DNA from: Colwellia sp. M166
Lineage (GTDB): Bacteria > Pseudomonadota > Gammaproteobacteria > Enterobacterales > Alteromonadaceae
DNA: 64,000 nucleotides
Direction of reading: 5' to 3'
Assembly (NCBI RefSeq): GCF_024585285.1
Contig: NZ_CP040755.1
Location: 620,001 to 684,000 of the forward strand
Part shown: in pieces, positions 1,176 to 34,922 of the stretch
How the letters are laid out: every line of letters starts with the position of its first letter
Numbering within the stretch: the first letter of the stretch is position 1
The notes under the pieces: model-generated
Database searches by the model: none
Told to the model about the DNA's origin: nothing
What the model saw: only the letters and a program-made list of their open reading frames with translations
Made by a program: the position numbers and the translations under genes

Positions 1176-3793
1176 CTATAGCGCCAGATCCAATGACTCG
1201 ATTGCAGCTACAATTGTATGAACAGAGTTTCTGTCAAACTCTGCTCGATCTACTTCTTCATGAGTACCTTTGTTCAGATACCGCCATTCGCGAGAATCAC
1301 CATTAACACCTAATAACTGATCTATGGGTGATAAAACATTATGTTTATTGGGATCAGTGAAGTCACCTTTGTTAATCTTAGTTTTAAGTTGATCTGTTAA
1401 CTGACGCAACTCAATTGGCGCATTTGCGGTACGTAATTTGATACTTAAATTGCCATCTCCATGCTTACTGACATATCGCCATACTTTTCCTTTAGTTAAT
1501 AATTCTAACGCTTGGCGAGATTTACCCAATGCAAATCGTATTTCATTTTTACGAATATGTTCTAATGCTCCTTCTATATAGTTTCGTGGGGCGCAATTGA
1601 AATCAACTTGTATATGCGGCTCATCAATACGAGGTAAAAACGCCAACCGCTGGCTACTTCTGGCTTGCTCTACTGATAACATGTTTTGGATATCTTTAAA
1701 GAGTTCCTCTCCATGACATGTCAAGATAATCTGCTTTCCATCAAAGTAATCATCTTCAAATAGAGTGCGCCTGATGGACTCTCGGTGGTCATCATCAATA
1801 GCATTAACCGGGTCATCAAAGATAAGAAGAGGGCAACCTTCTTTTATGTTTTTCGCCAATAGTATTGCCAAACCAATGCAACGAATATGCCCTTCACTTA
1901 ATACATGGAGAGCATCAAAATACTTTTCAGGCTCGTTTTGATAAGAAATTTTTAGCTTCTGGTTTTGTGCTAGCGGTAGCTGAATTGATGCCAATAACTC
2001 TGTTGGCGCATCGTTACGGTTGAATGCATTATATAATTTAACAACTTCATCACCTAAGTTTTCGACTAGCAGTGCAGGCAGCTTCTTACGATAGGTATTA
2101 AGTAAAGCTACAAACTGCTGGTAGGACTCTCTGATTTCAATATTCTGCTCCACAATAGGCTTTTCCTGCTCGACTTCACCGATGAGTGATTTATTTTCTT
2201 CGTCAAATTCACTAATTAGCTTTTGAGCACCTTCAATTGCTTTGATTGCTGCACTCTTCGAAGCAGCTAGCTTTTGAGCGTCATTTAAAAAAACTTTTAA
2301 TCGGTTTAATTCTAGTTGCTGAGCTTTCTTATTCTGTTCAATTTGAACACTTTCAGTATCCTGTTTTTCTAGGGAGTTTACTTGTGTATCAATATGCTGA
2401 ATGGCTGATGTGCCATCACCTAACACAACATTCAAACTATTCCACCATGTCACATTTAATTGAGACATATCAGCTAGCTTGAATGGTGCTAACTTGTTAT
2501 CAATGGAATAAAAATTTAAGCAAGTGGATAATATCTGATGCAATTCTTGAAGCTTTTGAAGCACTGTTTGCTCAAGTTGTTTTATTTTAGTTTGCAATTC
2601 AGCTAAGTGTTGAAGTTTGACTAGCTCCTCTCCTGCATGAGTGAAAGGATTAACGGTTACTTCCGTTAATGGGGTTAAACATGCTGGGCATTTATCAGGA
2701 CTAATTTGCTGAACTTGAGTTACCGATTCAAATAGCCGTTGGAAAGATACTTGTTGGCTTGCATTCGCTAATTCTTCTTTTTTTGTTTATGGTCATTTAG
2801 ACTACTTGCTAACGTTTGTTTGATTAAGGCTAAGTTAGCAGCGGTTAGGTTACTTTTTTGCGGAGCAGGCTTTTGCAGCTCTGCTTCTAATAAAGGTATT
2901 TGCCCTTGCCTTTCCTCAGACCCATTAAGCTCAAACATCATTTTCAGTAAAGTACAGCCTTCTCTATAGCGTGTTGCTAGTGAAGTTTCTTCACCCTTCA
3001 CCTGTTCAACAATGCCTTTATTAAGCTTTATTTGCTGTTCAGCGCCTTGGAGTTGAAGCCGTTTTTGAGAAAGCTTCTTTGCTTTGACACCTTCTACATC
3101 AATGTGTTTTCCATCCATTTCAGGAGAGAAGTTTTTAACAAACTCATTAAACGCATCAAGGCCAAATAGTGTTGATATTAGTTCTGACTGTTTGGCTGGA
3201 GCTTGTGCAGCAATACGCGAAAAGCTATCTATTCGATTTTTCTCAACAAAGCAAAATCGATAAAGAGCATCATTAGGTTTGATATTGACATCACTGCCTT
3301 GAGCATCAATTCCGATCAATTTGGGAGGTACGAATTTATTGGTATGGGCATTTTTCAAATAAGCTTCAACATCTCTAAAACGTTTACTTTCAGCTTCTGC
3401 CACAGAACCTAATAACGCATATTCCAATGCTTCACAGAAACTTGACTTACCTGTACCATTTGGCCCAAAGATAAGAACTAATATACTTTTTAGATCAAAA
3501 GTTTCTTCACGGCTAAATCCCCGAAATGAATCAACAGTCAATTCTTTGAGTAGAGTAAAAGATGCAACATCTGATGTTATATCTTCAAGATCAGTTGGGA
3601 TATCCGCATCTAAATTAGCCCAATATTTTTGAGCAAGCTTTGCGACATTTTTAACCCTTTGTCCCTGATACGTACCTAGAGGAACAATTTTATCTAGGTT
3701 CTTTAGTACCAAGTTAGCGAATTTATGAACTGACTCACTAGATGGAGATGATAGTAAAGTTTGAAGAAAACGTTGATATTCAGACTGGATCAT
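1176..3793 (-). pseudogene. Rad50/RloC-like zinc-hook ATPase, split by a frameshift at an A7 run (possible -1 programmed frameshift)
   Basis: Two adjacent frames together encode an 872-residue SMC/Rad50-type ATPase. The first (3793-2768, 341 aa) has Walker A GPNGTGKS at about residues 110-117 and starts a coiled coil. The second has no start of its own at the junction and continues the coiled coil. Its CPAC motif (about residues 369-372) resembles a Rad50 zinc hook. It also has an ABC-type LSEGH signature (about 632) and Walker B LLIFDDP (about 656-662). The C-terminal helical domain ends with R-x6-H (about R838, H845), a pattern like HEPN ribonucleases such as RloC. The frames meet at C-AAAAAAA-G, where frame 0 reads A_AAA_AAG and stops two codons later at TAG. 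A -1 slip restores the full protein. A good AAGG ribosome site precedes the ATG at 3793. It may be a real two-product gene, a mutant, or a sequencing error. Defence or DNA-damage roles are inference. Confidence 0.7.
2777..2783 (-). promoter_or_regulatory. A_AAA_AAG slippery heptamer at the frame junction
   Basis: On the minus strand the frame-0 codons CAA AAA AAG contain A_AAA_AAG in exactly the phase used by the dnaX -1 frameshift site. A stop (TAG, 2770-2768) follows two codons later in frame 0, while the -1 frame is open for another 533 residues. I see no strong Shine-Dalgarno-like stimulator about 10 nt upstream, and only a weak AGCC/GGCT pairing downstream. The stimulatory parts of a classic site are therefore weak or absent. 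Confidence 0.45.
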
Positions 3794-3948
3794 ACCTTCC
3801 CTTATATTTGATAAATTGTCAGATTGCTCAGCAGAGCCTTAACCTAACGATAATGTCCTTTGTAAATCCTGTTATCAAAGTTATCAGTTTAAAAAACGTA
3901 AGTAAATCAACACGCGACCTAATGCTAATTACTTTGATTTTACACAAT

Positions 3949-4223
3949 AAAAAGACCGTCAATCTTACGAATAAAGGGCTTCTCTTAATCTGGCGATGAG
4001 ATAGAGCTTTAAACTCTTCTCGAAGGTTTAGCGCTACAAACCCTCGTAGCTTTATTTGCATTCAAATAGCAAAAAGGCGCTAACCTTTCGATTAGCGCCT
4101 TCTCTTAATTTGGCGATGAGATAGAGCTTTGAACTCTACGCGAAGGTCTAGCGCTACAAACCCATTACTAAAATAAACGTTCAGATAGCAAAAAGCCCGT
4201 CAATCTTGCGATTAACGGGCTTC
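3949..4223 (-). repeat. tRNA-Ser tail array A: two tandem partial tRNA copies with terminators
   Basis: Reading away from the tRNA on the minus strand, two units follow at a period of 120-121 bp. Each has a spacer starting GCTAT(C/T)TGAA, a copy of the tRNA from the variable arm through the T-arm to CCA (4163-4111 and 4043-3991), then a Rho-independent hairpin. Hairpins lie at 4190-4223 (right after the tRNA), 4071-4102, and a degenerate one at 3949-3983. In the first copy the T-arm still pairs (TAGAG-TTCAAAG-CTCTA) and the variable arm forms GGTTT/AGACC. The 5' half of the tRNA is absent, so these copies cannot be tRNAs. The organisation resembles the rtT repeats after E. coli tyrT. Confidence 0.85.
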
Positions 4224-4231
4224 TCTTAATG

Positions 4232-4322
4232 TGGCGGTGAGATAGAGATTTGAACTCTAGAAGGGCTACAAACCCTTGCCGGTTTTCAAGACCGGTGCTT
4301 TCGACCACTCAGCCATCTCACC
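4232..4322 (-). tRNA. tRNA-Ser(UGA), copy A
   Basis: The minus strand gives a 91-nt class II tRNA with encoded CCA. The acceptor stem is GGTGAGA/TCTCACC with discriminator G. The anticodon loop CTTGAAA contains TGA (4288-4286). The long variable arm is AAGGG-TTTGTAG-CCCTT, and the T-arm is TAGAG-TTCAAAT-CTCTA. It decodes UCA and related serine codons. The gene is identical in length and near-identical in sequence to the copy at 34766-34856, including about 36 bp of leader. Its 3' side is followed by the tail array. Confidence 0.97.
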
Positions 4323-4358
4323 TGAACTCTAAAGCATTGCTGCTTCAGAACGAGGCGA

Positions 4359-4387
4359 ATATTAAATACCTGAGGCGCTTTTGTAAA
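4359..4387 (-). promoter_or_regulatory. Promoter of tRNA-Ser copy A
   Basis: On the minus strand TTTACA (4387-4382), a 17-bp spacer, and TAATAT (4364-4359) form a near-consensus sigma-70 promoter. A GC-rich discriminator (TCGCCTCG) follows, typical of stringently controlled stable-RNA promoters. The second tRNA-Ser copy has the same boxes at the same spacing, although its spacer sequence differs. Confidence 0.8.
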
Positions 4388-4585
4388 GTGCTAATTGCGC
4401 TTATTTTGCATTTTATTTAATTTTTTGTGCCAAGTGCTGAATAATTCATCAAATATCAGATTTTAACTGCCCTTTCGATGTTTATTTGTTCATTTTTAAA
4501 ACGTACGATTTGTAACAATCGTAACGATCCGTATTTATCACGGCAACTGGTATACTATGCTACTGCATATTTACTAGGAGGTGTT

Positions 4586-34488: not shown

Positions 34489-34757
34489 AAAAAGCCTGTC
34501 AATCTTTTGATTAACGGGCTTCTATTTAATGTGGCGGTGAGATAGAGCTTTGAACTCTACTCGAAGGTTTAGCGCTACAAACCTCTTTCTAAAATAAACG
34601 CTCAGATAGCAAAAAGCCCGTCACTTTCGTAACGGGCTTTTCTTAATGTGGCAGTGAGATAGAGATTTGAACTCTACTCGAAGGTTTAGCGCTACAAACC
34701 TCTTTCTAAAATAAACGCTCAGATAGCAAAAAGCCCGTCACTTTCGTAACGGGCTTT
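34489..34757 (-). repeat. tRNA-Ser tail array B: two tandem partial tRNA copies with terminators
   Basis: After the tRNA on the minus strand come two units at an exact 117-bp period. Each partial copy (34700-34649, 34583-34532) runs from the variable arm to CCA, followed by a Rho-independent hairpin: 34728-34757 directly after the tRNA, 34611-34640, and 34489-34521. The copies form AGGTTT/AAACCT (a variable-arm hairpin different from the tRNA's own AAGGG/CCCTT) and keep the T-arm (TAGAG-TTCAAAT-CTCTA in unit 1). The units are closer to one another than those of array A, so they look younger or homogenised. Confidence 0.87.
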
Positions 34758-34765
34758 TCTGAATG

Positions 34766-34856
34766 TGGCGGTGAGATAGAGATTTGAACTCTAGAAGGGC
34801 TACAAACCCTTGCCGGTTTTCAAGACCGGTGCTTTCGACCACTCAGCCATCTCACC
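34766..34856 (-). tRNA. tRNA-Ser(UGA), copy B
   Basis: The same 91-nt tRNA-Ser(UGA) as at 4232-4322, same strand, with acceptor GGTGAGA/TCTCACC, anticodon TGA, long variable arm and encoded CCA. The duplicated stretch includes the leader up to the -10 box. The promoter spacer differs, so the copies are not a recent perfect duplication, or they are kept alike by gene conversion. Confidence 0.97.
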
Positions 34857-34893: not shown

Positions 34894-34922
34894 ATATTAA
34901 AGACTCGATATTGTCTTGTAAA
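34894..34922 (-). promoter_or_regulatory. Promoter of tRNA-Ser copy B
   Basis: TTTACA (34922-34917), a 17-bp spacer and TAATAT (34899-34894) on the minus strand, followed by the GC-rich TCGCCTCG discriminator. Confidence 0.8.

What the first reader, a model, noticed from the sequence alone, without database searches (positions are those of the whole stretch)
3949..4322. tRNA-Ser(UGA) with a tandem tail of its own 3' halves, each with a terminator (array A)
Seen: two partial tRNA copies (variable arm to CCA) follow the gene at 120-121 bp period, each ending with a Rho-independent hairpin. Known: E. coli tyrT has similar rtT repeats carrying the tRNA 3' end. Inference: read-through transcripts would yield short RNAs with tRNA-like T-arm and CCA, which could act on tRNA-processing enzymes, aminoacyl handling, or as sRNA sponges; or the array may simply drive unequal recombination.
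Basis: partly seen in the sequence, partly recalled or inferred. Interest (0 to 1): 0.75.

Follow-up and report, generated by a model that had tools for sequence, protein, structure and literature searches.

The report
Tandem terminator tail behind a tRNA gene
Behind both serine-tRNA genes of this marine bacterium lie repeated, truncated copies of the gene's own 3' half, mostly followed by a transcription stop signal; related bacteria carry the same tail, which looks like a recombining DNA satellite of spare stop signals rather than a set of structured tRNA-like RNAs.

Summary
In detail: tRNA-Ser(UGA) at 4232-4322(-) is followed by two tRNA 3'-half units at 121 and 120 bp spacing. The second tRNA-Ser(UGA) (34766-34856) has the same tail at 117 bp. 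Units occur in 16 of 17 genomes of the genus (the miss is 66% complete) and in other genera.

The terminator keeps pairing through compensatory change (z about 8), and 46 of 48 non-last units carry one. The T arm and the unit's new hairpin are not constrained beyond controls, apart from a weak T-arm signal. T-stem alleles follow the neighbouring tRNA gene.

Best reading: a concertedly evolving satellite of a truncated tRNA 3' half plus terminator, kept by recombination and serving at most as spare terminators. A consensus scan saw no promoter inside the tails, and RtT RNA was not found in the genus. The sRNA reading is disfavoured, not excluded; conservation of the unit's inserted segment stays unexplained.

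Similar tails, apparently separate in origin, occur on tRNA-Asn, tRNA-Val and, in another family, tRNA-Ser. New variant of a known kind (E. coli tyrT tail).

The parts
4359..4387 (-). promoter-like site of tRNA-Ser A (TTTACA-17-TAATAT)
   Evidence: consensus match only, 3 sites found in the region against 1.4 in shuffles
4232..4322 (-). tRNA-Ser(UGA), copy A
   Evidence: ARAGORN; RF00005 61 bits
4193..4222 (-). intrinsic terminator of tRNA-Ser A (-20.5 kcal/mol)
4111..4163 (-). unit A1: variable-arm-like segment, T arm (4138..4122), acceptor 3' strand, CCA
4074..4101 (-). terminator of unit A1 (-18.9 kcal/mol)
   Evidence: (stem seen on the + strand)
3991..4043 (-). unit A2, with CCA
3952..3981 (-). 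decayed terminator of unit A2 (best hairpin -4.3 kcal/mol)
34894..34922 (-). promoter-like site of tRNA-Ser B
   Evidence: consensus match only, 2 found against 1.4 in shuffles
34766..34856 (-). tRNA-Ser(UGA), copy B
34731..34756 (-). terminator of tRNA-Ser B (-18.3 kcal/mol)
34649..34700 (-). unit B1
34614..34639 (-). terminator of unit B1 (-18.3 kcal/mol)
34532..34583 (-). unit B2
34492..34521 (-). terminator of unit B2 (-12.6 kcal/mol)

Best explanation
The tail is a tandem DNA satellite derived from the tRNA-Ser(UGA) gene: a truncated copy (variable-arm remnant, T arm, acceptor 3' strand, CCA) with its intrinsic terminator, amplified, shortened and homogenised by homologous recombination between units, between the two loci of a genome, and with the tRNA gene's own 3' half. 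Shown: the layout, its spread, marks of concerted evolution, maintained terminators, and no structural constraint beyond controls on the tRNA-like part (apart from a weak T-arm signal). Inferred: a single origin in the ancestry of these genera (from the shared insertion), unequal exchange as the engine, and termination as the only activity under selection (a cascade of spare terminators behind a strong stable-RNA promoter). In relatives the locus is also an integration site of mobilizable elements, which move or cut the arrays.
For: Units in 16 of 17 genomes of the genus and, with several units per array, in other genera of the family. In the T-arm scan, 87 units in 39 arrays of 31 genomes, 1-6 per array (the scan undercounts, e.g. 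1 in L034 where the profile shows 4 full units and a fragment). Concerted evolution: unit identity 0.90 within an array, 0.90 between arrays of one genome, 0.76 between genomes; units next to a TAGGG-allele tRNA carry an AGGG stem in 15 of 17, and 0 of 70 units next to a TAGAG-allele tRNA carry TAGGG. Terminator: 92.1% paired against 78.9% under random substitution (z 8.4; column permutation z 8.2), unlike T arm (z 2.4; 1.1) and unit hairpin (z 1.2; -0.1) on the 49 aligned units; repeated on the 59 of 70 candidates of 80 nt or more: terminator z 8.5 and 8.9 (10 gapped rows left out), T arm 1.7 and 0.3, hairpin 0.5 and -0.2. 7 of 9 terminator pairs show two-sided changes. Terminator in 46 of 48 non-last units against 1.7% of shuffles, and in 8 of 9 non-last units whose trailer differs from that of the local tRNA. 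T stems decay as at random. A tail of another type in G061, not seen at unit length in the 8 other genomes of its family, and tails on Asn and Val argue for a recurring mutational process.
Against: The 15-nt segment between variable-arm remnant and T arm stays 0.76 identical between genomes while the adjoining spacer is at the shuffle baseline (0.587 against 0.576). Part of that segment (CCTTC) has a counterpart in the tRNA, but recombination with the tRNA cannot maintain the inserted letters, so selection or horizontal spread is needed for them. T-loop letters change less than stem letters (25 in 7 nt against 80 in 10 nt). The T-arm z of 2.4 is a weak signal the other way. Spare terminators do not favour arrays facing co-directional genes (15 against 15, 6 without ORF, 3 stretches too short), so no benefit of insulation shows. 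Allele tracking rests on few lineages, because the TAGGG loci are L017, L020, L021, L081 and L156 only, and one unit outside that scan (L035 1501-1569) carries TAGGG beside a TAGAG tRNA. Detection by homology inflates conservation of the unit, though the scan used the T arm to CCA alone. In one search the 45-nt window misses terminators lying beyond inserts.
Confidence: 0.66

Rival explanations
1. [quoted passage not shown] coli RtT RNA or the rrA/rrB/rrF RNAs between dual rrn terminators.
For: Inserted letters conserved between genomes while the spacer is saturated; intact terminator after 46 of 48 non-last units; weak T-arm signal (z 2.4); precedent of sRNAs between dual terminators of rrn operons expressed by read-through (PMC8144298, abstract and discussion passages) and of RtT (PMC4986893, passages).
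Against: No structural constraint on T arm or hairpin beyond controls in most tests; no promoter-like site inside the tails in a consensus scan; RF00391 found in 0 of 17 genus genomes with the E. coli control positive; unit number varies 0-6 between related loci.
Confidence: 0.15
2. The tail is a by-product of site-specific integration: mobilizable elements enter at the 3' part of tRNA-Ser(UGA), leave 3'-half scars, and units serve as (decoy) attachment sites.
For: In G008 a 12.6-kb stretch with a tyrosine integrase, MobC and relaxase lies between an intact tRNA-Ser(UGA) and a decayed displaced 3' half plus a unit; L006 and L019 start inside the anticodon stem. The same element end (GGGCTGCAC... 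and TTCCGAATA in G008 and G005; only the first part seen in G016) follows the tRNA's CCA in G008 but a unit's CCA in G005 and G016. The last unit shows no terminator within 45 nt in 16 of 39 arrays; 6 of these 16 are insert-bearing, and of the other 10 several lose likeness right after CCA.
Against: The Colwellia-type units read here share the inserted segment and a similar spacing, as expected of tandem duplication rather than separate integrations. Units lack the anticodon arm where displaced heads begin. No integrase among the 7 of 14 long ORFs tested in the G005 stretch.
Confidence: 0.15
3. Plain tRNA pseudogenes without any activity, kept only because deletion is slow.
For: T stems decay as under random substitution; similar degenerate units at Asn and Val loci.
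Against: Terminators are conserved by compensatory change, also where they differ from the local tRNA's; the inserted segment outlasts the spacer.
Confidence: 0.2

Closest known systems
E. coli tyrT operon tail (3.14 repeats of 178 bp holding the tRNA-Tyr 3' end; RtT RNA, RF00391)
   Same: A tRNA operon followed by tandem repeats, each holding a 3' piece of the tRNA (details of the E. coli tail recalled; RtT as an RNA freed from a tRNA operon transcript read in passages of PMC4986893).
   Different: Here the repeat is mostly 111-129 bp, carries about 50 nt of tRNA 3'-half character, has its own intrinsic terminator, belongs to tRNA-Ser(UGA), and RF00391 was not found in the genus.
Photobacterium phosphoreum repetitive tRNA-Pro/tRNA-His cluster (recalled only; one search listed no paper)
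   Same: Marine gammaproteobacterial tRNA cluster with degenerate tRNA copies (recalled).
   Different: Other tRNAs; sequence not compared here.
rrA/rrB/rrF small RNAs between dual terminators of E. coli rrn operons (PMC8144298, abstract and discussion passages)
   Same: Stable-RNA operon ending in more than one terminator, with short sequence between that read-through would transcribe.
   Different: The rrn RNAs are reported conserved in structure and shown to be made; units here show no clear structural constraint outside the terminator, and expression is unknown.
Integration sites of mobile elements in tRNA genes
   Same: Direct repeats of a tRNA 3' end; element with integrase at the locus in a relative.
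   Different: Tandem units of one common type with terminators, about 120 bp apart, with no room for an element between them in the window.

Membership tests
RtT RNA (RF00391) | match to the covariance model | tested here: not met
   0 of 17 genus genomes at E <= 1, E. coli control positive; not among the 16 matches listed for 3800-4450 up to E 10
tyrT-type repeat tail | tandem repeats behind a tRNA gene that each include the tRNA 3' end with CCA (definition recalled) | tested here: met
tyrT-type repeat tail | release of a stable RNA during tRNA processing | not testable with these tools
   no expression data
tRNA gene | cloverleaf scored as tRNA | tested here: not met
   units not reported by ARAGORN or RF00005 at its cut-off
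structured small RNA | helices kept by compensatory change beyond chance | tested here: not met
   clear for the terminator only; T arm z 2.4 and 1.1 (49 units), 1.7 and 0.3 (59 units); unit hairpin z 1.2 and -0.1, 0.5 and -0.2, with two pairs of five showing a two-sided change in one cell each
intrinsic terminator | G+C-rich hairpin followed by T run | tested here: met
   46 of 48 non-last units, 23 of 39 last units, shuffles 1.7% of 240; in the window A1, B1, B2 good, A2 decayed
integration site (att) | integrase gene beside the repeat with 3'-half duplication | tested here: inconclusive
   seen in relative G008; the window's 30-kb stretch between the two genes was not examined for an element

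The most novel reading that the evidence does not exclude
The tail is a sacrificial landing strip: repeated T-arm-to-CCA segments, insulated by terminators, draw integrative mobilizable elements that recognise the tRNA 3' end away from the tRNA-Ser(UGA) genes and let them insert without stopping the tRNA or reading into the element. In G005 and G016 the element end abuts a unit's CCA, not the gene's.
Probability: 0.1. Interest if true: 0.75.

Novelty: new variant of a known kind. Interest (0 to 1): 0.42.

Why it matters
Repeat tails behind tRNA genes have been known since the E. coli tyrT work without, to my recollection, an agreed function. A set with dozens of arrays across related genera lets one ask by comparison which part is under selection. 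Here the clear answer is the terminator, not the tRNA-like part. The recurrence on Ser, Asn and Val tRNAs suggests that tRNA genes may shed such tails as a by-product of recombination. It also warns annotators: some degenerate Asn units are called tRNA-Tyr or undetermined tRNA by ARAGORN.

Tried and rejected
Structured tRNA-mimic RNA: tested and not supported. RNAalifold on the whole alignment found only terminator-region pairs. Unit as part of a virus: the two viral hits of an 18-mer are judged chance from the sequence around them, which holds neither T arm nor terminator. The third own-genome hit is 23S rRNA by inspection. Rfam below cut-off: STnc400 27.5 of 80 bits and sX4 44.6 of 70 bits, read as terminator or tRNA likeness. 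Insulation of co-directional genes: 15 against 15. Insert-bearing units were sought in the own genome with one insert as query: only the tRNA-derived end (E 0.004) and an 18-nt match (E 0.6) came up. A first, stricter terminator scan without mismatches gave 37 of 54 non-last and 16 of 42 last units (G061 rows included); one search replaced it, with an energy criterion and without G061 (L078-L080) and L157. Rows dropped before counts: one search listed 70 candidate units after removing displaced tRNA heads, units longer than 110 nt, units not reaching CCA, G061 units and exact duplicates. By hand I aligned 49 of the 70, leaving out those without terminator region, some near-duplicates and also some divergent full-length ones (such as L016 1781, L035 858 and 1380, L036 2058, L009 1894, L081 973). 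Because that choice could flatter the terminator, repeats the test on the 59 of 70 of at least 80 nt, with the same outcome. One search scored 20-letter cores only (48 that differ from the reference). The variable-loop comparison failed (pattern did not match the tRNA side) and is not used. Paper searches showed, by titles and abstract starts, no paper on these tails; the library lacks most subscription papers.

Full report
What is there. On the minus strand, tRNA-Ser(UGA) (4322..4232) is followed by terminator, unit A1 (4163..4111), terminator, unit A2 (4043..3991) and a decayed terminator. A second tRNA-Ser(UGA) 30 kb away (34856..34766) has the same tail with 117-bp spacing. A unit carries the 5' part of the long variable arm (GGGTTTGTAGC), an insertion absent from the tRNA around a CCTTC that the tRNA has, then T arm, acceptor 3' strand, CCA, a short A-rich stretch and the terminator. 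The array as query finds only these two Ser arrays in the own genome; a third weak hit is 23S rRNA by inspection.

Other tRNAs of this genome. RF00005 has 86 matches in the genome (150 of 373 candidates scored). I scanned 75 ARAGORN genes in 23 fetched loci plus the window for a copy of their last 26 nt in the 900 nt downstream, up to 8 mismatches. Besides Ser there are two 98-bp Asn-like units after the first tRNA-Asn(GUU) (L065), and one exact and one degenerate 3' half in the tRNA-Val(UAC) cluster (L047). No other scanned gene had one at that threshold; the tRNAs of six rRNA operons were not fetched.

Relatives. With the array as query, 65 of 78 related genomes match, many only by the tRNA itself. 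With a covariance model of 49 units, 16 of 17 genomes of the genus match, and reading the list of places against the tRNA genes shows a unit beyond the gene in each of the 16; the miss is a 66% complete genome. The model was built partly from these genomes. In a draw of 295 genomes of the family, 106 match at E <= 1e-6, again including plain tRNA 3' halves. Fetched arrays from other genera hold up to four units in the T-arm scan, and six loci of that scan have none (L015, L018, L070, L075, L082, L159). A pattern scan of named genomes gave 10 stretches: Colwellia maritima, C. polaris, C. hornerae, other Colwellia and one Alteromonadaceae MAG. In another family of the order, genome G061 has its own Ser tail with about 112-114 bp spacing and a different inserted segment. 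Of the 8 other genomes of that family, 7 match only the end of the query (acceptor and terminator side) and one not at all, at E <= 1e-8. That tail therefore looks separate and young.

Which part is under constraint. On 49 aligned units the terminator has two-sided changes in 7 of 9 pairs; the T arm in 1 of 5, the same A-U to G-C change as in the local tRNA; the unit hairpin in 2 of 5, one cell each, while one of its pairs is unpaired in 22 of 49. Against random substitution the terminator stands out (z 8.4), the T arm weakly (2.4), the hairpin not (1.2); column permutation gives 8.2, 1.1 and -0.1. The 49 were chosen by hand from 70; on the 59 of at least 80 nt the values are 8.5, 1.7 and 0.5, and 8.9, 0.3 and -0.2 (10 gapped rows left out for the terminator). 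Two further controls are negative: unit hairpin energies (-3.21 observed, -3.02 random mutants, lower in 25 of 48; -3.38 same-position mutants, lower in 17 of 48) and T stems relative to the local tRNA gene (4.04 observed, 4.09 expected, 47 distinct combinations, G061 rows included). Terminators within 45 nt of CCA: 46 of 48 non-last units and 23 of 39 last units, 1.7% in shuffles. Of 30 units whose trailer is less than 75% like that of the local tRNA, 16 have one, and of the 9 non-last among them 8. Six of the 16 last units without one (L007, L014, L041, L069, L083, L156) hold an insert that fills the 45-nt window, so a terminator beyond it would be missed.

Concerted evolution. Unit identity is 0.901 within arrays, 0.899 between arrays of one genome and 0.759 between genomes; T-stem alleles follow the local tRNA in 15 of 17 units beside a TAGGG gene and 0 of 70 units beside a TAGAG gene carry TAGGG. 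The TAGGG loci are few (L017, L020, L021, L081, L156), and one unit outside that scan, L035 1501-1569, carries TAGGG beside a TAGAG gene. Terminators are shared along some arrays, for example in C. maritima L034. These are marks of recombination between units, loci and the gene. The exception is the 15-nt segment with the insertion, which keeps 0.761 identity between genomes while the spacer (0.587) is at its shuffle baseline (0.576). Gene conversion from the tRNA cannot do that for the inserted letters. Selection on sequence, or spread by mobile elements, is the open point.

Mobile elements. L006 and L019 are arrays whose head lacks the 5' part of the tRNA and starts in the anticodon stem. 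In G008 an intact tRNA and a decayed displaced 3' half with a unit flank 12.6 kb with a tyrosine integrase, MobC and relaxase. In G005 the same element end follows a unit's CCA, and the first part of it does so in G016 (L013). I tested 7 of 14 long ORFs of the G005 stretch and found no integrase.

How it most likely works. Transcription starts at the promoter-like site upstream and, judged by hairpin energy, mostly stops at the first terminator. Units act, if at all, as second and third terminators for read-through. Their tRNA-like part is a homology tract that lets the array grow, shrink and exchange with the gene without harming it, because units lack promoter and 5' half. Only the layout, conservation, terminator constraint and exchange marks are shown; termination efficiency, read-through and dynamics are inferred.

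Known relatives. The layout is that of the E. coli tyrT tail (details recalled), whose RtT RNA was reported as freed from a tRNA operon transcript and linked to amino-acid limitation (PMC4986893, passages). RtT itself was not found in the 17 genomes of the genus. Small RNAs between the dual terminators of three E. coli rrn operons (PMC8144298, abstract and discussion passages) show that read-through between terminators can yield RNAs; these are reported conserved in structure, which the Ser units are not outside the terminator.

Verdict. A real, widespread tail of a known general kind, not met in the paper searches made here. The regulatory-RNA reading loses ground; the recombination reading gains. 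The recurrence across tRNAs and the integration-site link give it moderate interest.

Noticed in passing
L065 2206..2000(-); L086-L095, L097-L099: tRNA-Asn(GUU) clusters of Colwellia and a related genus carry Asn-like units with an expanded anticodon arm and mostly intact T arm and CCA, often behind the last gene, with terminators between in the two arrays read in full (14 of 17 loci scanned have one; loci chosen by similarity). ARAGORN calls some of them tRNA-Tyr or undetermined tRNA.
   Followed up: partly
L047 1146-1188 and 1845-1875: tRNA-Val(UAC) cluster of the own genome holds an exact and a degenerate 3' half without the rest of the gene.
   Followed up: no
L007, L014, L041, L068, L069, L072, L083, L156: Some units carry an insert of about 50 nt in the acceptor strand with, by eye, two hairpins whose loops read ATCCNT; the opposite strand reads CAGGGATG and CAAGGATG, like CsrA-binding loops (motif recalled). 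Not found in the own genome.
   Followed up: partly
L163 230-12461: Integrative mobilizable element with tyrosine integrase, MobC and relaxase in tRNA-Ser(UGA) of genome G008, with a terminator-like hairpin directly after the gene's CCA.
   Followed up: partly
window 1176-3793 (-): N-terminal part (AAA_23) and C-terminal part (SMC_N, below cut-off) of a defence-type ATPase resembling LmuB, AriA and DndD models lie on two separate ORFs just downstream of array A.
   Followed up: no
L009 1894-1975, L019 1321-1234, L081 1062-973: Last units in three genomes end in one shared terminator type (CCTCTGTTTTACAGGGG or close variants), possibly the old end of the locus.
   Followed up: no
L022 2156-1520 (-): In genome G028 four complete tRNA-Ser(UGA) genes stand in tandem and no unit was seen in that locus; the first differs from the others in T stem and acceptor.
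   Followed up: no
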